In this document: one piece after another, positions 11,918-34,781 of the stretch
How positions within the stretch are numbered: the first letter of the stretch is position 1
Layout of the letters: the number at the start of each line of letters is the position of its first letter
From: Candidatus Kapaibacterium sp.
GTDB taxonomy: Bacteria; Bacteroidota; Ignavibacteria; Kapaibacteriales; UBA2268
NCBI GenBank assembly: GCA_937995785.1
Contig: CALKJQ010000065.1
Span: 1 to 34,786, forward strand
Direction: 5' to 3'
Length of the DNA: 34,786 nt
The notes under the pieces: generated by a model
Told to the model about the DNA's origin: nothing
What the model saw: only the letters and a program-made list of their open reading frames with translations
The model's database searches: none
Made by a program: the position numbers and the translations under genes

Positions 11918-11998
11918 TTAATCATTATTTTTGTAACTTGAAGGGAGTAAGGCATTAACTTCTTTCTTTAAAATTGGAAGGTGTCTCATTATTACACC
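11918..11998 (-). pseudogene. Detached C-terminal end of the HepT-like HEPN gene
   Basis: Directly after the TAG stop of the hepT-like gene the same frame stays open for 26 codons to TAA (11918-11920). It reads like the normal end of DUF86/HepT proteins (GVIMRHLPILKKEVNALLPS). Members of this family usually have a Trp or other hydrophobic residue where the TAG stands, so a single TGG to TAG change explains the split. With this tail the protein would be about 117 residues, a normal HepT length. I see no ribosome site or start for independent translation. Confidence 0.75.
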
Positions 11999-12271
11999 CT
12001 ACACTATTTCATCGTCAACTTTATCATAACCATGAATAACCCTATTTCTCTTTGAAATAATTTTTTGTTTGCTTGATATTTCGATATTGTTTGATATTTG
12101 ATTTAATTTATTGAGAGCTTCGCCAATAATTTCGAATTCTCTTTCGACGGCTCTTCGTAACATTTTATTGGATTTATATTGTGAAAATTCGCTTATCCCA
12201 TCAAGATAGTCCTCTATGGAAAGGATTGATTCTGATATATCCATAAGGTATTTGTCAGGAGACTTTTCCAT
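11999..12271 (-). CDS. hepT: HepT-like HEPN ribonuclease toxin (DUF86), shortened by an amber codon
   Basis: HEPN toxins of the HepT/MntA type are RNases held in check by AMP transfer from the paired nucleotidyltransferase. The active-site motif Rx4HxY is present (RNRVIHGY; R75, H80, Y82 counted from the ATG at 12271), preceded by the family segment AVEREFEIIGEALNKL. I chose ATG 12271 because family members start just before DKYLMDI; it overlaps the mntA end by 17 bases. The product stops after 90 residues at TAG 11999-12001, although homologous sequence continues beyond. The lost last helix packs in the HEPN bundle, so the toxin is probably inactive or unstable unless the amber codon is read through. 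Confidence 0.85.
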   Translation of the reverse strand: MEKSPDKYLMDISESILSIEDYLDGISEFSQYKSNKMLRRAVEREFEIIGEALNKLNQISNNIEISSKQKIISKRNRVIHGYDKVDDEIV

Positions 12272-12566
12272 AAATTTGTTTTTTGGATTTGTTGATGGAT
12301 TCAATCAAAAAAGGATTTTTTAATGATTTTGTTGTTATTAAGTCAACCCGCCTGTTAAATAATTCTTCAAATTCTTCGGCAATGTCCAAGTAAGAATCAG
12401 CATAGTCTGCAAAATTCACATCAGATAATTCAATCAGCAAATCGATATCCGAACTTTCACTTAATTCATTTGAAACCGCAGAGCCAAATATGTATAAACT
12501 ATTAACATTGTATTTTTGGCATAATTGCCTAATTTTTAGAATATTATTAGAAATGATAGTATTCAT
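12255..12566 (-). CDS. mntA: MntA-like minimal nucleotidyltransferase antitoxin
   Basis: A 103-residue minimal nucleotidyltransferase with the signature GSx10DxD (G28-S29, D40, D42) and a third acidic residue in RRVDLIT (D75). In studied HepT/MntA pairs this enzyme adds AMP units to the Tyr of the HEPN Rx4HxY motif and so disarms the toxin. All catalytic residues visible here are intact, in contrast to the interrupted partner gene that overlaps its 3' end. The gene order antitoxin then toxin, on one strand with overlap, is normal for this system. Confidence 0.9.
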   Translation of the reverse strand: MNTIISNNILKIRQLCQKYNVNSLYIFGSAVSNELSESSDIDLLIELSDVNFADYADSYLDIAEEFEELFNRRVDLITTKSLKNPFLIESINKSKKQIYGKVS

Positions 12567-12649: not shown

Positions 12650-12850
12650 CTATGATAGATAGATTTCGTCCGAACTTTTATTGTTTATTTTTCCCTTTTC
12701 GTTCCTGCCTTGAAAATATTCTTTGATACCATAGAGCAATTCTGCAATGATTCGCCTCCGCAAGTCGAACGCTAAAAGAGTTGACAAAAAAATTGAATAA
12801 ACAACTTTGTTGTAAGCCGATAAATAAACTATGTTACTATATGGCTTCAT
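12650..12850 (-). CDS. Small hypothetical ORF or gene remnant
   Basis: A 66-codon open frame directly downstream of rsgA. The first half is low in information; the second half (LRRRIIAELLYGIKEYFQG, then a charged tail) looks like the C-terminal end of a real protein. I recognise no family. It may be the tail of a decayed gene, a small real protein, or chance. No convincing ribosome site is seen ahead of the ATG. Confidence 0.2.
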   Translation of the reverse strand: MKPYSNIVYLSAYNKVVYSIFLSTLLAFDLRRRIIAELLYGIKEYFQGRNEKGKINNKSSDEIYLS

Positions 12851-27570: not shown

Positions 27571-28669
27571 TTATTTGTCGCCAAGCAAAAGATATGCTTT
27601 TAGGAAATCGTCCAAATCGCCATCCATAACTCCCAAAACGTCTGTTTTCTTCAATTCGGTTCTGTGGTCGTTCACCATCGTGTAGGGTTGGAAAACATAT
27701 GATCGGATTTGACTTCCCCACTCGATTTTCATTTTTTTGCCTTCGATTTCGGCTCGCTTGGCTTCTTCCTCTTCTCGCTTAATTTGATACAAACGCGATT
27801 TGAGCATTTTCATTGCTCTTTCGCGATTTTGAAGTTGCGAACGCTCTTGCTGGCACGAAACCACAACTCCCGAGGGGATATGCCGCAGGCGGACTGCTGT
27901 TTCGACCTTATTAACATTTTGCCCACCTTTGCCGCCACTGCGGAATGTGTCCATTTCGATATCATCGGGATTGATTTCGATTTCCACATCGTCCTCGATT
28001 TCGGGATAAACATAAACAGAAGCAAAAGATGTGTGGCGACGGGCATTAGAATCGAATGGCGATATCCGAACCAATCGGTGAACTCCGTTTTCGCCTTTCA
28101 ACAACCCAAAGGCGTATTTACCTTGAATTTCCAATGTTGCCGATTTAATTCCAGCACCATCACCCTCCAATTCATCAACTAAATATGCTTTGAATCCACT
28201 ACGCTCGCACCAACGCGTATACATTCGCAACAGCATCTCAGCCCAATCTTGTGCTTCGGTTCCTCCCGCACCCGAATGTATAGTTAAAATTGCGTTTCGT
28301 TCGTCGTCCACTCCCGAAAGCAAGTTTTTAATTTCCACTTCTTCTACTGCTTTTTGCAGTTGTTCCAATTCGTTATCAATTTCGCCCGTGAACGATTCGT
28401 CCTCTGCCGCTTCTGCCAATTCAATTAGTGCCACTATATCTTCGTAGTTTTTGTATAGGTTTTCGTAAGTAGCAATCCAATCCTTTAATGAAGAAATTTC
28501 TTGTAGAATTTTTTTTGCTGTATTTTGGTCGTTCCAAAAATCAGTTTCTTGGGTTAGTTGGTCTTTTTGGCGAACTAATTCGCACTTTGTATCGACGTCA
28601 AAGAAACCTCCGTATTTGCTGGATTCTTTCGTCGAGCGATTTTAATATCTCTTTTTGTGGTTCGAACAT
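27571..28669 (-). CDS. prfB: Peptide chain release factor 2, with programmed +1 frameshift
   Basis: RF2 ends translation at UGA and UAA. The gene starts at ATG 28669; codon 23 is CTT (28603-28601) followed by in-frame TGA (28600-28598). Skipping one T gives GAC and a frame that runs to 27571, 365 residues in all, the usual RF2 length. Downstream signatures are the domain 1 region, [11 protein letters not shown], the stop-codon tripeptide SPF ([15 protein letters not shown]), and the peptidyl-release motif GGQ ([19 protein letters not shown]). The segment CGGAGG a few bases before CTT TGA C is the internal Shine-Dalgarno element of the known autoregulatory signal: low RF2 favours frameshifting. 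Confidence 0.96.
28598..28614 (-). promoter_or_regulatory. RF2 autoregulatory +1 frameshift site
   Basis: On the minus strand GGAGG (positions 28611-28607 within ATACGGAGG) stands three bases before CTT TGA C. This is the canonical RF2 recoding element: a Shine-Dalgarno-like stimulator, a slippery CTT and a poorly terminated TGA followed by C. The 0 frame upstream and the +1 frame downstream both encode RF2 sequence, which proves that the shift is used. Confidence 0.95.
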
Positions 28670-28863: not shown

Positions 28864-29706
28864 ATGTGGATAGAAATATTTAAGACGGGCACTCACACAA
28901 GCAGCAACGGAAATGACCACGATTTTTCGGTGGAAGATTTGGATAAAATTGCCAATCAATACAATCAACTAAATTCTAACAATAATAATCTTGCTCCACT
29001 TGTGAAGGGTCATCCTTCGACCGACGCACCTGCATACGGTTGGGTGGAGCGACTTGCCCGCCGAGGCAACTATCTTATGGCTAAAATTCGTGATTTAACA
29101 CCCGAAATAATCGAAGAAGTCCGCAACAAAAAATATCAAAGAATATCGATATCTCTCACTCCAAAACTTCACCTAAATCACGTTGGTTTGCTGGGGGCAG
29201 CCGTGCCGGCTGTCGATGGTTTAGCCCCCGTCTCTTTTGTGGAATTGGACGACAACATAGAACTGGAATATTCACAAAATGATGGAAGTTTCACTTATTT
29301 GATTCATCAAAATAACGAATTAAAAGAAAAAGTGGAGAATTACGAACGGGCATTAGTTAGCAAGGATTTAATGGAATTTACTTCGAACTTAGTGGAAAAG
29401 AAAATAATATCAAAACATCAAAAGCACAATGCTCAAGATTTGTTGGAATTGGCTTACGATATCGACAAAGCTAATCCAAACGAATTCAATTTGCTTGAAA
29501 AAGTAAAATCGTTTTTCCAGAAAATGCAATTCAATTCATTGCAAAAAGAATTTGCAACAAACCAAACTACCAACAAAATTGGCGAATTACTAAACACCCG
29601 AGAATTACTAAACGACAGGGGCGAATTGCATCGAACCATTTTGGAATATATCGAGCAAAATCCCGAAATAAGTTACGAACAAGCATTATCTGAAATTATA
29701 AAATAA
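28864..29706 (+). CDS. Mu gpI-like phage protease/scaffold protein
   Basis: 280 residues. The N-terminal half matches the Mu I-protein family: IEIFKTGTHT, a middle segment with VKGHPSTDAPAYGWVE, LMAKIRDLTPEIIEE, YQRISISLTPKLHLN, LGAAVPAVDGLAPVSF. These proteins mature phage heads, and a scaffold is often made from the same gene. The C-terminal half is helical and charged (NELKEKVENYERAL, then FNLLEKVKSFFQKMQF), as expected for a scaffold. It is the first gene of the phage-derived cluster, 14 bases before the capsid gene. Catalytic residues cannot be assigned with certainty by eye. Confidence 0.75.
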   Translation: MWIEIFKTGTHTSSNGNDHDFSVEDLDKIANQYNQLNSNNNNLAPLVKGHPSTDAPAYGWVERLARRGNYLMAKIRDLTPEIIEEVRNKKYQRISISLTPKLHLNHVGLLGAAVPAVDGLAPVSFVELDDNIELEYSQNDGSFTYLIHQNNELKEKVENYERALVSKDLMEFTSNLVEKKIISKHQKHNAQDLLELAYDIDKANPNEFNLLEKVKSFFQKMQFNSLQKEFATNQTTNKIGELLNTRELLNDRGELHRTILEYIEQNPEISYEQALSEIIK

Positions 29707-29719
29707 ATTAGGAGAAATA

Positions 29720-30640
29720 ATGAACAGCAGATTGGATAATTTGAGAATTGTTGACCCAATTTTAACTAATATCGCCGCCGGATATACACCAGCAAATTTG
29801 GTTGGACGATACCTATTCCCAACGGTGAAGGTAAAATCTCAAAAAGGCAGAGTGCCCGTGTTTGGCAAGGATTCCTTTGTATTGAGGGATAGCAACCGTG
29901 CAATTCGAAGCAATTCGAACCGAATACCCACTATGGATTTCGAAACGATTGAATTTTCGTTGCAAGAGCGCGACTTAGAAGTTGCAATGGATTATTTAGA
30001 AGAGTTGGAAACATATGATTTGTTGCAATACGAGCAAAAATTAGTAACTGATTTACTTAACATTTTGGAACTCGAGAAAGAAAAGACAATAGCCGATTAT
30101 GTTCAGAACCCCGATAATTTTGGTTCCAACAACAAACTTGTGTTGGATGAAAGCAATAATTTTACTGCTGGGGGTAGCCCAAAAACAATAATAATGGAGT
30201 CGATTGAGCAATTAAGAAAGCAAATATCGCGGATGCCCAATTTGATGATAATTGGAACTGATTCATTCAACAAAATTTTAAGCAATTCCGAAATTAATTA
30301 TCCCCTGAATAATATTGGCAAAATGACTGCCGATACTAAATATATTGGGGAGGCATTTGGAATTAAAAATGTATATGTGGGACAAAGTGTTTATTCCGAC
30401 GATGGCAGAGTTTTCAAGGATGTATGGCGAGATAATATAATAATAGCCTATGTTGATCAATCTCAAAACAAATCACAATACAATCCAAGTTATGGCTATA
30501 TTTTCCAGCGTGATGGGATGCCCGAAATCGATTCTTACTACGAAAATGGAGGTAAAGTAAAAATAATTCGGGCAACCGACAATTGGGCAATGAAAATTGT
30601 TGCCCCCGAAGCCGCTTTTTTAATAAGTAATACAAATTAA
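29720..30640 (+). CDS. Phage major capsid protein
   Basis: 306 residues. The N-terminal segment VDPILTNIAAGYTPANLVGR and YLFPTVKVKSQKGRVPVFGK are typical of a capsid subfamily found in Mu-like and other tailed phages. The body (LLNILELEKEKTIADYV, LRKQISRMPNLMIIGTDSF, FGIKNVYVGQSVYSDDG, VDQSQNKSQYNPSYGYIFQR) and the end ATDNWAMKIVAPEAAFLI fit an HK97-type fold in which the axial and peripheral domains follow the N-arm. A strong ribosome site (AGGAGA) lies 5 bases before the start. Its place after the protease and before the decoration protein supports the call. Confidence 0.85.
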   Translation: MNSRLDNLRIVDPILTNIAAGYTPANLVGRYLFPTVKVKSQKGRVPVFGKDSFVLRDSNRAIRSNSNRIPTMDFETIEFSLQERDLEVAMDYLEELETYDLLQYEQKLVTDLLNILELEKEKTIADYVQNPDNFGSNNKLVLDESNNFTAGGSPKTIIMESIEQLRKQISRMPNLMIIGTDSFNKILSNSEINYPLNNIGKMTADTKYIGEAFGIKNVYVGQSVYSDDGRVFKDVWRDNIIIAYVDQSQNKSQYNPSYGYIFQRDGMPEIDSYYENGGKVKIIRATDNWAMKIVAPEAAFLISNTN

Positions 30641-30651
30641 GGGAGAAATTT

Positions 30652-30990
30652 ATGATATCCAGATTATCTTATCAGCCTTTGTTAAGGCTAACTATTACTG
30701 CAGCCGAGGCAATCCCCGCCCATAAATTTGTGAGTATTAACGGAGGATTATGCACTGGATCTCAAAAAGCATTGGGAGCAAGCGATTATCCCGTTTTGAG
30801 TGGCGAGCAAACATCGGTAATTGCTTTGGGCACTGCAATATTGCAGGCAACGGGCTCAATATCCAAAGGAACTTTGGTTGCCGCTGATGCTACGGGCAAT
30901 GCCAAACCAATCGAAAGCGGAGAGTCGCCGCTGGGCATAGCAATTAGCGATAAAGTTGGCGATTTTGTGGAAGTTCTGATAACGCATTAG
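30652..30990 (+). CDS. Capsid decoration protein, DUF2190-like
   Basis: 112 residues of beta-rich, Ala/Gly/Ser-rich sequence (ITAAEAIPAHKFVSINGG, VIALGTAILQATGSISKG, LVAADATGNAKPIESGES, PLGIAISDKVGDFVEVLI) as in DUF2190/cement proteins that stabilise phage heads. It lies 11 bases after the capsid gene with GGGAG ahead of the start, the usual place for such a protein. Confidence 0.75.
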   Translation: MISRLSYQPLLRLTITAAEAIPAHKFVSINGGLCTGSQKALGASDYPVLSGEQTSVIALGTAILQATGSISKGTLVAADATGNAKPIESGESPLGIAISDKVGDFVEVLITH

Positions 30991-31070
30991 TTCTTTGAAA
31001 AGGATTATTAATTGGTGTGTTCCAGGGGAAAAAAACAATAGAGCTCATTCATATAACATTGTGAACTCAC

Positions 31071-31113
31071 CCCCTTACCCCCTCTCTTAAGAAGAGAGGG
31101 GAGAGAGAAGGGG
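31071..31113. repeat. Nested palindromic repeat (REP-like)
   Basis: A perfect 10-bp inverted repeat CCCCTCTCTT (31079-31088), loop AAG, AAGAGAGGGG (31092-31101) sits within an outer CCCCTT (31071-31076) / AAGGGG (31108-31113) pair. It occupies the spacer between the decoration protein and the small membrane protein gene. The strand bias of C then G tracts is like dispersed palindromic repeats of many bacteria. It may also act as a transcript-stabilising hairpin or as an attenuator. No T-run follows on the plus strand. Confidence 0.7.
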
Positions 31114-31174
31114 AAAACTATCGCCCACACTTTGTGGAGAATATAAAAAAATCAAATAAAAAATGGAGTTAATT

Positions 31175-31456
31175 ATGTTCGAGAAAATTAAAGATTTTAT
31201 TTTAAGAAATGGTTTGTGGTTGCTAATCTCGGCGATTGTTTTATTAGTTTTGGCACCGCAAGTGAGCGAATTGAGGATGTTGATGTTGATTGTATTCATC
31301 GAATTAGTTGCATTGGCGATGTCGGGTATTGCAAGTTATGTTTTCACCAAAGTAGATTTTATCGAAAATCGTTCCTATAACGCACTTGGGGCTATATTTC
31401 TGGGAGTTCATTTCTTGGTGGGACTTGGTGTGGTAGGATTGTATTATACGATATAA
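31175..31456 (+). CDS. Small membrane protein, holin-like by position
   Basis: 93 residues with three hydrophobic segments (NGLWLLISAIVLLVLAPQ; LMLIVFIELVALAMSGIAS; LGAIFLGVHFLVGLGVVGLY). I chose ATG 31175 because GGAG stands seven bases before it; an ATG four codons upstream lies on top of that element. Holins have this size and topology and the next gene is a peptidoglycan hydrolase, but the sequence belongs to no family I recognise. Confidence 0.6.
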   Translation: MFEKIKDFILRNGLWLLISAIVLLVLAPQVSELRMLMLIVFIELVALAMSGIASYVFTKVDFIENRSYNALGAIFLGVHFLVGLGVVGLYYTI

Positions 31457-31477
31457 TTTTTTTTAGACGAGGTTGTT

Positions 31478-32047
31478 ATGTTGAAAAAAATAATCATTAT
31501 TTTTCTTATTCCACTTGGATTGATGTCGCAATCCAAATTCGAACTACCTTGCAACTCCGCTTTACTCGAAAAATCCTTGCAAGTTGGATTAAAGCAAATT
31601 GGAACTATCGAAAAATCGAACCGAAACGATGGTGAAGTGGAAAAATACTTACTTGCAGTGGGCTTAACCAAAAGCAACCCCTATTGTGCCGCCGGTCAAT
31701 ACTATTGCTTTTTGCAAGCAGCTAATCAGTTAAAATTGACTGAAAACTTAATTCCAATACCCAGAACTGGACTGGCTAATGCAATATATGATTTCGCTAC
31801 ATTTAAGGGTCGTAAGATGCCTTACCGCGGAACCACGCACGATTTGATTGTATGGCGGCGTGGGAATTCAATATTCGGTCATATCGAACGAATTATCGAA
31901 GTTATGGATAAAGGCAACGTGCTCACTCTTGCTTTTAATGTTGCCGACGAAAAGGGCCGGCAAGGCGTATTTGTGAAAAAGCGGAACATTTATAATCCTA
32001 TCCGACGACTTAAAATTCGTGGCTTAATTGGTTTTCGAGGTGTTTGA
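31478..32047 (+). CDS. Secreted peptidoglycan hydrolase, CHAP/NlpC-like (putative endolysin)
   Basis: 189 residues. A Sec-type signal peptide covers about the first 18 (KKIIIIFLIPLGLMSQSK). The catalytic Cys is seen in NPYCAAGQYYCF near residue 67 and the His in GHIERIIEV near 130, the Cys/His dyad of CHAP and NlpC/P60-type amidases/endopeptidases. The rest (LQVGLKQIGTIEKSNRNDG, VWRRG before the His) fits this group. In the phage cluster it could serve host lysis, with export by Sec instead of a holin. A host cell-wall enzyme cannot be excluded. GAGG precedes the start. Confidence 0.75.
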   Translation: MLKKIIIIFLIPLGLMSQSKFELPCNSALLEKSLQVGLKQIGTIEKSNRNDGEVEKYLLAVGLTKSNPYCAAGQYYCFLQAANQLKLTENLIPIPRTGLANAIYDFATFKGRKMPYRGTTHDLIVWRRGNSIFGHIERIIEVMDKGNVLTLAFNVADEKGRQGVFVKKRNIYNPIRRLKIRGLIGFRGV

Positions 32048-32472
32048 TGAAGTCATTTTTGGTTATTATTAGCGTTTTAGCTTTTGCATTATTACTTTTA
32101 TTTTTATTAATAAATAATTTACCACTCAAAAAGCAAGACTATGTTGTTCATAAAATCGACACAATCATTAAAATAATTCCCCAAAAAGAAATAAAAATCG
32201 TCGAAGCCAAACCAAAAATCAAATTCATACTCGATACAATTATCCAAACCAAGCCATTCGTTGCCACAATCGATACAGTGATAGTTCGCGACACACTCTA
32301 CGCCCAATTTATGTTTCCCGATAATTTAATGTCGATAAATGTTCGAAGAAGTTCCGACAGCGTATTATTGCCCCAAATTACTATCGAAAAAACAAAATAC
32401 GAACGAAATTGGTACGAAACTGCCGCCGCTTTTGGTGGTGGTTTAATTTTAGGCTTAATAATAGGAAAATAA
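32047..32472 (+). CDS. Bitopic membrane protein of unknown function (spanin-like by position)
   Basis: 141 residues with a hydrophobic N-terminal helix (SFLVIISVLAFALLLLFLL), a beta-rich, Lys/Ile-rich middle of about 80 residues, and a hydrophobic Gly-rich C-terminal end (AAAFGGGLILGLIIGK). The start ATG 32047 overlaps the preceding TGA. Proteins with this plan follow endolysin genes in many phages and can act as spanins or tail-sheath accessory factors, but I recognise no family here. It is 3 bases ahead of the portal gene. Confidence 0.6.
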   Translation: MKSFLVIISVLAFALLLLFLLINNLPLKKQDYVVHKIDTIIKIIPQKEIKIVEAKPKIKFILDTIIQTKPFVATIDTVIVRDTLYAQFMFPDNLMSINVRRSSDSVLLPQITIEKTKYERNWYETAAAFGGGLILGLIIGK

Positions 32473-32475
32473 ATT

Positions 32476-33504
32476 ATGATTGGAATTAACAACACAAACT
32501 ATTTAACCAACGAGTTGATTACTCGAAATAATTTTTATTCTATCCATCGCACTATTGGAATATTGCCAAATATCGCGAAATTGTCGGTAACAAATTTGGA
32601 TTACATTCGCTCGCTCGACGAAGTTAGAAGCGACCCACACGTCCACAGCTGCATTCAATCCCGTAAGTCGGGTACTATGGCAATGAATTGGGAAATTATT
32701 GAATGTAGCAACAAAGATATGAACTCAATTATCAAATGTAATTTAGAAAAAATCGATGTTCTGGGTGTAATTTCGAACATTTTAGATGCGATATTTTATG
32801 GTTTCCAAGTACTGGAAATAATTTGGACGGAGGACAACAAAGGAAGTTTAATCGTGGACTCAATCAAGCCCAAACCTATGGGCTGGTTCTTTTTCGATAA
32901 TGAAAACAATTTAAGATTTAGGAGTAGGAGCAGTGCTAACGGAGAATTGTTGCCCGAGAACAAATTTTTAGTTCCACGCCACAACCCCAAATACGAAAAT
33001 CCCTATGGCGATGCTCTGCTGGGCAAATGCTATTGGGCAACAACATTGAAAAATATGGGCTTCAGATTTTGGATTAATTTCTTGGAAAAATACGGGATGC
33101 CTTTAATTATAGGTCAATACACTTTCCCATCGAATCCCGAAGAATTGGCAACTTTGAGCCAGAGATTGAATGAATTGCTCAATTCGCAAACTATCGCAAC
33201 GCCATCGGATGTGAATATCGATATTAAAGACATAGGACAATCGAAATCTGTAGATTTGTATTTGCAACTGATAAAAATTGCAAATGCCGAAATTTCTAAG
33301 GCATTGCTATCCGAAACATTAACAACCGAAATGGATTCGGGTTCGTATGCTGCCTCAGTAACCCATTTTAAGGTTCGACGCGAAGTAATTTTAGGCGATA
33401 AATTCTTAGTTGAACAAACGATGAACAAATTGATTGAATATATAGCGAAAGTAAATAATTTTGAATTTTGGAATTTGCCCAAATTTGCCCTTATGGAACA
33501 ATGA
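32476..33504 (+). CDS. Phage portal protein, DUF935 / Mu gp29-like
   Basis: 342 residues. The DUF935 marks are DPHVHSCIQSRKSGTMAMNW near residue 53, LDAIFYGFQVLEIIW near 103, HNPKYENPYGDALLGKCYW near 175, FWINFLEKYGMPLIIG and the C-terminal LLSETLTTEMDSGSYAAS with SVTHFKVR and VLGDKFLVEQTMN. Portals form the dodecameric DNA channel of the head. It is shorter than Mu gp29 (about 500 residues); the conserved core is present and the missing part is the variable C-terminal extension. Its TGA overlaps the umuC ATG. Confidence 0.85.
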   Translation: MIGINNTNYLTNELITRNNFYSIHRTIGILPNIAKLSVTNLDYIRSLDEVRSDPHVHSCIQSRKSGTMAMNWEIIECSNKDMNSIIKCNLEKIDVLGVISNILDAIFYGFQVLEIIWTEDNKGSLIVDSIKPKPMGWFFFDNENNLRFRSRSSANGELLPENKFLVPRHNPKYENPYGDALLGKCYWATTLKNMGFRFWINFLEKYGMPLIIGQYTFPSNPEELATLSQRLNELLNSQTIATPSDVNIDIKDIGQSKSVDLYLQLIKIANAEISKALLSETLTTEMDSGSYAASVTHFKVRREVILGDKFLVEQTMNKLIEYIAKVNNFEFWNLPKFALMEQ

Positions 33505-34781
33505 AGAAACCAAACATAATCGCGTTGGTTGATTGCAACAACTTTTATGCTTCGTGCGAGCGTGTGTTCAATCCCAAATTAAATGGTCGCCCCATCGTAG
33601 TTCTATCGAACAATGATGGGGTGATTATCGCTCGTAGCGAAGAAGCCAAAGCACTGGGGATTAAGATGGGTGACCCTTTTTTCAAGGTGGAACAGCTAAT
33701 CAAGCAAAAAAAAGTTGCAGTTTTTTCGTCCAACTATACCCTGTATGGAGATTTGTCGGCACGGGTGATGACAACACTCGAACGCTTTTCGCCCGAAGTA
33801 GAGATTTATTCAATCGACGAGGCATTTCTGAATTTAACGGGAATTGAATCCGAAAATCAAACACGGTATTTACACAACATTCGCAATACCATCAAAAAGT
33901 GGCTTGGATTGCCAGTTTCGATAGGAATGGCACCAACCAAAACTTTAGCAAAATTGGCAAACCGATTAGCCAAGAAAAATAAGGAGTACAATGGTGTTTT
34001 GAATTTGTATGAATATGATAATTATGAAAAATTTTTAGAATCAATCGAGGTTGAGGACATCTGGGGAGTCGGGCGGCAATACTCGGCTATGCTACATCGA
34101 AACAATATCCATACTGCATTGGATTTAGCCCGCTCCGACCGCAAATGGATAAAAAAACGAATGACCGTAGTTGGATTGCGAACTGTTATGGAACTCAACG
34201 GAATACCTTGCATCGATTTGGAACACACCCCACCCACAAAAAAATCCATAGTATCCTCGCGTTCTTTTGGCGACTATCTCACAAAATTCGACGAACTGAA
34301 GGAGGCAGTGTCCTATTTTGTTGCCCGTGCATCCGAAAAAATGCGTTCGCAGGGTTCGGCTTGCAGAATTTTGAATGTGTTTATCCGAACGAATCCATTC
34401 AAGAACTCCCCGCAATACTATAATTCAGCAGAGGTTCGATTGCCATATCCAATGAATGGGACAAACGAACTATTGCCATTTGCCAATCAAGCTTTAAAGA
34501 AAATATTCCGAGATGGGTATTACTATCAAAAAGTTGGAGTTTTGTTGATGGATTTTGTTCAAACCAATAATATGATGGTATCGCTATTCGACCCACCAAA
34601 CCGATTGAACCAAATAAAAGCAACTGAATTGATGGACAAAATCAACAAAAAATACGGACGCGAAGCCATTTACTTTGCCGCAGCTGGAATGAAAGAACAC
34701 CGACGATGGCAAATGAAACGGGAATTACTATCGAACCATTTTACAACTAATTGGAAGCACCTTCCCGAGGTAAAAGCATAG
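33501..34781 (+). CDS. umuC: UmuC-type Y-family DNA polymerase
   Basis: Catalytic subunit of DNA polymerase V-type translesion enzymes. Catalytic residues are visible: the first Asp in LVDCNNFYASCERVF, and the SIDEAFLNL motif near residue 105. The finger region VVLSNNDGVIIARSEEAK is typical, as are the helix-hairpin-helix (VEDIWGVGRQ) and the little-finger domain; the C-terminal DUF4113-like region (YGREAIYFAAAG ... RRWQMKRELLS) is complete. About 426 residues is usual. I chose ATG 33501; it overlaps the portal stop as ATGA, so it is translationally coupled to a phage gene. No umuD is seen in the window. Confidence 0.95.
   Translation: MKKPNIIALVDCNNFYASCERVFNPKLNGRPIVVLSNNDGVIIARSEEAKALGIKMGDPFFKVEQLIKQKKVAVFSSNYTLYGDLSARVMTTLERFSPEVEIYSIDEAFLNLTGIESENQTRYLHNIRNTIKKWLGLPVSIGMAPTKTLAKLANRLAKKNKEYNGVLNLYEYDNYEKFLESIEVEDIWGVGRQYSAMLHRNNIHTALDLARSDRKWIKKRMTVVGLRTVMELNGIPCIDLEHTPPTKKSIVSSRSFGDYLTKFDELKEAVSYFVARASEKMRSQGSACRILNVFIRTNPFKNSPQYYNSAEVRLPYPMNGTNELLPFANQALKKIFRDGYYYQKVGVLLMDFVQTNNMMVSLFDPPNRLNQIKATELMDKINKKYGREAIYFAAAGMKEHRRWQMKRELLSNHFTTNWKHLPEVKA

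What the first reader, a model, noticed from the sequence alone, without database searches (positions are those of the whole stretch)
11918..12271. Amber codon splits the HepT toxin while the MntA antitoxin stays intact
TAG at 11999-12001 ends the HEPN protein after its Rx4HxY motif, yet 26 codons of family-like sequence follow in frame to TAA. One base change (TGG to TAG) explains it. The antitoxin keeps all visible catalytic residues. This suggests recent toxin loss, or a leaky toxin made only by amber readthrough.
Basis: partly seen in the sequence, partly recalled or inferred. Interest (0 to 1): 0.6.

Follow-up and report, generated by a model that had tools for sequence, protein, structure and literature searches.

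The report
Broken toxin beside intact antitoxin
A common bacterial toxin-antitoxin pair (HepT/MntA) in this genome has had its toxin gene cut short by one stop codon while the antitoxin gene stays whole; a survey of 190 related pairs shows that toxins break this way in about one in ten and antitoxins almost never, so it is an ordinary, fresh case of toxin loss.

Summary
On the minus strand, a class I HEPN/MNT pair (mntA 12255-12566, hepT 12271-11918) has an in-frame TAG at 12001-11999 that ends HepT after 90 residues. Another 26 family-like codons follow in frame before TAA. The stop is not a natural end: 136 of 137 related loci have Trp (TGG) at this codon, and none ends there. Amber read-through is unlikely: release factor 1 is present, none of 40 tRNAs has a CUA anticodon, and TAG ends 4 of 27 other window genes. 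MntA is open with its GSX10DXD motif intact. The tail after the stop has not drifted, so the mutation is recent. AlphaFold predicts that the lost part is the last two helices of the HEPN bundle, so the 90-residue product is most likely a dead toxin. In 190 unique HEPN/MNT loci, 20 toxins are broken (19 nonsense, 1 frameshift): 19 lie beside an open antitoxin and 1 beside a broken one. No broken antitoxin lies beside an open toxin (p about 4e-6). This is ordinary toxin-first decay of a type VII-like toxin-antitoxin pair. Read support and activity of the 90-residue form could not be tested. Interest is low to modest.

The parts
12255..12566 (-). mntA: MNT-domain adenylyltransferase antitoxin, 103 aa, intact, GSX10DXD motif
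   Evidence: Pfam Polbeta E 3.1e-16 and NTP_transf_2 E 3.4e-13; PADLOC PDC-S09 E 9.3e-29; conserved motif residues kept
11918..12271 (-). hepT: HEPN RNase toxin reading frame, 117 codons with one in-frame TAG; overlaps mntA by 17 bases
   Evidence: Pfam PF01934 E 1.4e-19 when read through; relatives
12002..12271 (-). the 90 codons actually translated before the stop; contain RX4HXY
11999..12001 (-). premature TAG stop at a codon that is Trp in 136 of 137 relatives
11918..11998 (-). 26 untranslated in-frame codons plus TAA, coding for the last two predicted HEPN helices (most of helix 87-96 and all of helix 98-108)

Best explanation
This is a HEPN/MNT (HepT/MntA, type VII-like) toxin-antitoxin operon in the first stage of decay. 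A recent point mutation made a premature stop in the toxin gene at a conserved Trp codon. Shown: the stop, the conservation of the codon, the intact antitoxin, the lack of drift after the stop, the ordinary use of TAG, and the excess of toxin breakage over antitoxin breakage in relatives. Inferred: the 90-residue product lacks the two C-terminal helices of the HEPN bundle, so it misfolds or cannot form the active dimer and is not a working RNase. MntA is now an orphan antitoxin without its target, expected either to decay next or to be kept only if it neutralises other HepT toxins. The order toxin first, antitoxin later follows because losing the antitoxin first would leave the toxin unchecked.
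For: Stop confirmed. The codon is Trp in 136 of 137 relatives and none terminates there. RF1 is present, no CUA tRNA was found among 40, and TAG ends 4 of 27 window genes. The MntA frame is open with its motif kept. The tail after the stop is as similar to relatives as the part before it (mean difference -0.001, against -0.09 for other pairs). The last two helices are lost in the AF2 model, pLDDT 81.8, whose best PDB match is Shewanella HepT 5yep. Among 190 unique loci, 20 HepT genes are broken, 19 of them beside an open MNT, with no broken MNT beside an open HepT. The binomial test after correcting for the number of stop-prone sites gives p about 3.5e-6.
Against: No reads were available, so an assembly or sequencing error is not excluded. 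The genome is a 94% complete draft of 153 contigs, so a suppressor tRNA could lie in a missing part. The 90-residue form keeps RX4HXY, and its inactivity is inferred, not measured.
Confidence: 0.85

Rival explanations
1. The TAG is a sequencing, assembly or strain-mixture error, and the real gene is intact.
For: Draft genome of 153 contigs with no reads at hand. A single substitution is all that is needed. The tail shows no drift.
Against: Substitution errors in consensus contigs are rare. Errors would hit both genes equally, but in relatives nonsense falls on HepT and not on MNT (20 against 1). Broken HepT genes also occur in assemblies of named strains, not only MAGs (L138, L155).
Confidence: 0.07
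2. The toxin is made at a low level by amber read-through, as a leaky or conditional toxin.
For: A single amber codon with an intact tail that keeps family identity.
Against: RF1 present. No CUA anticodon among 40 tRNAs. TAG is an ordinary stop elsewhere. No relative shares this stop. Stops in relatives are at scattered positions and mostly TAA, so no read-through design is conserved.
Confidence: 0.05
3. The 90-residue HEPN fragment is a functional product, for example a non-toxic partner or decoy for MntA that still carries the tyrosine that MntA modifies.
For: RX4HXY is kept in the fragment. In Shewanella HepT the equivalent Tyr104 is the site that receives AMP (PMC7641770).
Against: No homologue naturally ends there. 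Trp91 and the last two helices are conserved parts of the bundle. Truncations in relatives fall anywhere, many before the motif.
Confidence: 0.03

Closest known systems
HepT/MntA of Shewanella oneidensis (SO_3166/SO_3165), type VII toxin-antitoxin
   Same: Same gene pair, RX4HXY and GSX10DXD motifs, adjacent genes. The predicted HepT fold matches 5yep (PMC7641770).
   Different: Here hepT is interrupted. The sequences are distant, below the NCBIfam equivalog cut-offs.
HEPN/MNT pairs of Bacteroidota and related MAGs (e.g. L102, L104, L011)
   Same: 60-67% identical HepT, same order mntA-hepT, same Trp codon.
   Different: Their toxin frames are open.
Decayed chromosomal toxin-antitoxin pairs, such as ccdO157 and hok/sok copies in E. 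coli (PMC2654758), and orphan antitoxins in Klebsiella (PMC7192599)
   Same: Loss of a working toxin, with antitoxins left unpaired (reported for Klebsiella).
   Different: Different toxin families. The toxin-against-antitoxin count made here is for HEPN/MNT.

Membership tests
Class I HEPN/MNT (HepT/MntA) toxin-antitoxin pair as defined in PMC7641770 | HEPN protein of PF01934 with RX4HXY | tested here: met
   PF01934 E 1.4e-19, 70.5 bits against cut-off 23.5 (read through); R75-x4-H80-x-Y82
Class I HEPN/MNT (HepT/MntA) toxin-antitoxin pair as defined in PMC7641770 | Neighbouring MNT protein of PF01909 with GSX10DXD | tested here: met
   NTP_transf_2 50.2 bits against cut-off 21; G28, S29, D40, D42
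Class I HEPN/MNT (HepT/MntA) toxin-antitoxin pair as defined in PMC7641770 | Complete toxin reading frame | tested here: not met
   In-frame TAG at codon 91; hence a decayed member, not a working pair
NCBIfam NF047751 HepT_toxin / NF047752 MntA_antitoxin (type VII equivalogs) | Score above the curated cut-off | tested here: not met
   36.2 and 48.9 bits against cut-off 60
HEPN toxin fold | Helical bundle like solved HepT | tested here: met
   AF2 model of the read-through form, best match 5yep chain C, probability 1.00, TM 0.66, but E 4.8e-3
Type VII toxin-antitoxin function | MntA adenylylates the HepT tyrosine and neutralises an RNase | not testable with these tools
   needs biochemistry

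The most novel reading that the evidence does not exclude
HEPN/MNT pairs pass often and repeatedly through a short-lived toxin-off, antitoxin-on state (about one pair in ten at any time). The orphan MntA is kept for a while because it protects against HepT toxins carried by incoming elements (anti-addiction). This window would be one snapshot of that cycle.
Probability: 0.12. Interest if true: 0.5.

Novelty: new member of a known kind. Interest (0 to 1): 0.22.

Why it matters
One broken toxin gene matters little by itself. The count behind it is more useful: in 190 HEPN/MNT loci, toxins are broken in about 10% and antitoxins in under 1%, with no antitoxin-only breakage. That agrees with the pair being a working addiction or defence module in most hosts, and it makes the order of decay measurable for what is described as the most abundant toxin-antitoxin type in prokaryotes (PMC7641770).

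Tried and rejected
Natural end at this codon: rejected, 0 of 137 relatives. Recoded TAG or a suppressor tRNA: RF1 present and no CUA tRNA found. A second intact copy in the same genome: none found. Empty-site comparison in sister genomes: rsgA and the 715-aa neighbour gene lie on separate contigs in the sister genomes that hold both, so no shared empty site could be read. Phage or plasmid carriage of close relatives: no match in phage records, 10 mostly distant matches in plasmids, 4 in viral contigs. Two apparent breaks (L016, L232) were removed from the tally because the stop lies before the real start codon. Direct sequence search of the PDB gave only chance matches for HepT.

Full report
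What is there. On the minus strand between a 715-aa secreted-protein gene (11474-9327) and rsgA (13875-12856) lies a two-gene operon. mntA (12566-12255, 103 aa) is followed by hepT (ATG at 12271), which overlaps it by 17 bases. hepT has an in-frame TAG at 12001-11999 after 90 codons, then 26 sense codons and TAA. Read through, it matches PF01934 HepT-like at E 1.4e-19 over profile positions 1-119 of 120. The partner matches Polbeta and NTP_transf_2 and PADLOC PDC-S09. Both signature motifs that define class I HEPN/MNT pairs in PMC7641770, RX4HXY and GSX10DXD, are present. Scores are below the NCBIfam type VII equivalog cut-offs, so this is a distant member.

Is the stop natural? No. Relatives were collected from the window's genus, family and class, from GTDB genomes and from viral contigs. 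At the stop codon 136 of 137 have Trp (TGG) and one has Leu. None ends there, and intact proteins end 15-33 codons later. Trp91 is an invariant column in alignments of 15 and 42 sequences; in the window's own row that residue is the read-through placeholder, not an observed one.

Is TAG really a stop here? Yes, as far as can be tested. RF1 (prfA) is encoded at C71. None of the 40 tRNA genes found has a CUA anticodon. TAG ends 4 of 27 other window genes. The draft is 94% complete, so a missing suppressor cannot be fully excluded. ARAGORN on the loci showed no Ala or Ile tRNA, which suggests that the rRNA operon region is missing from the draft.

What is lost? The AlphaFold model of the read-through protein (mean pLDDT 81.8) has helices 5-23, 29-34, 36-59, 68-80, 87-96 and 98-108. 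Its best PDB matches are the Shewanella HepT structures 5yep, 6m6w and 6m6u (probability 1.00, TM about 0.65, E not below 0.001). The stop removes most of helix 87-96 and all of helix 98-108. Loss of function is inferred from this and was not measured.

How old? The segment after the stop is as similar to relatives as the segment before it. The mean difference is -0.001 for the window against -0.09 for pairs of intact relatives. The conserved positions of both genes are kept. The mutation is therefore recent.

Is it unusual? Extra loci were added and three duplicates removed, giving 190 unique HEPN/MNT loci. An MNT gene is present in 189, and the one without it lies at a contig edge. After removing two false breaks before the start codon (L016, L232), 20 HepT genes are broken: 19 by nonsense and 1 by frameshift (L019). 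Of these, 19 have an open MNT and one (L138, Mucilaginibacter galii) a broken MNT as well. No locus has a broken MNT beside an open HepT. The two genes offer nearly equal targets for nonsense (49.9 against 46.7 one-step sites), and the corrected binomial probability is about 3.5e-6. The stops are at scattered positions and mostly TAA, which is the pattern of independent decay, not of a conserved read-through signal. Caveats: loci were found through HepT, and events were not placed on a tree. Most genomes are MAGs, although L138 and L155 are deposited as named strains.

Interpretation. The best-supported reading is toxin-first decay of a HEPN/MNT pair, caught soon after the nonsense mutation. 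Decay of chromosomal toxin-antitoxin pairs and abundant orphan antitoxins are already described for other families (PMC2654758, PMC7192599), so the kind of event is known. The asymmetry count for HEPN/MNT is the only part that goes beyond routine, and I did not find it in the papers searched. That was a limited search.

Noticed in passing
190 HEPN/MNT loci (L003-L249): HepT is broken by nonsense or frameshift in 20 of 190 unique loci, while MNT is broken in 1 and never alone.
   Followed up: yes
27571-28575 (-): prfB (RF2) needs a programmed +1 frameshift: GGAGG TTT CTT TGA C before the main frame, the classical RF2 autoregulation signal.
   Followed up: partly
28864-34781 (+): Part of a Mu-like prophage: head maturation protease, major head protein and portal protein, followed by a 437-aa DNA polymerase (PHROGs).
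   Followed up: partly
12664-12722: A stretch of about 50-60 bases between mntA and rsgA is 83% identical to single places in two sister genomes (G002 C487, G004 C4). It lies in a 66-aa frame (12650-12850, -) that looks like a dispersed element or degraded gene, not a conserved protein.
   Followed up: partly
L209 and L224: Two HepT genes from different families of the same class carry TAG at the same second conserved Trp codon (alignment position 69), so Trp codons recur as nonsense sites.
   Followed up: no
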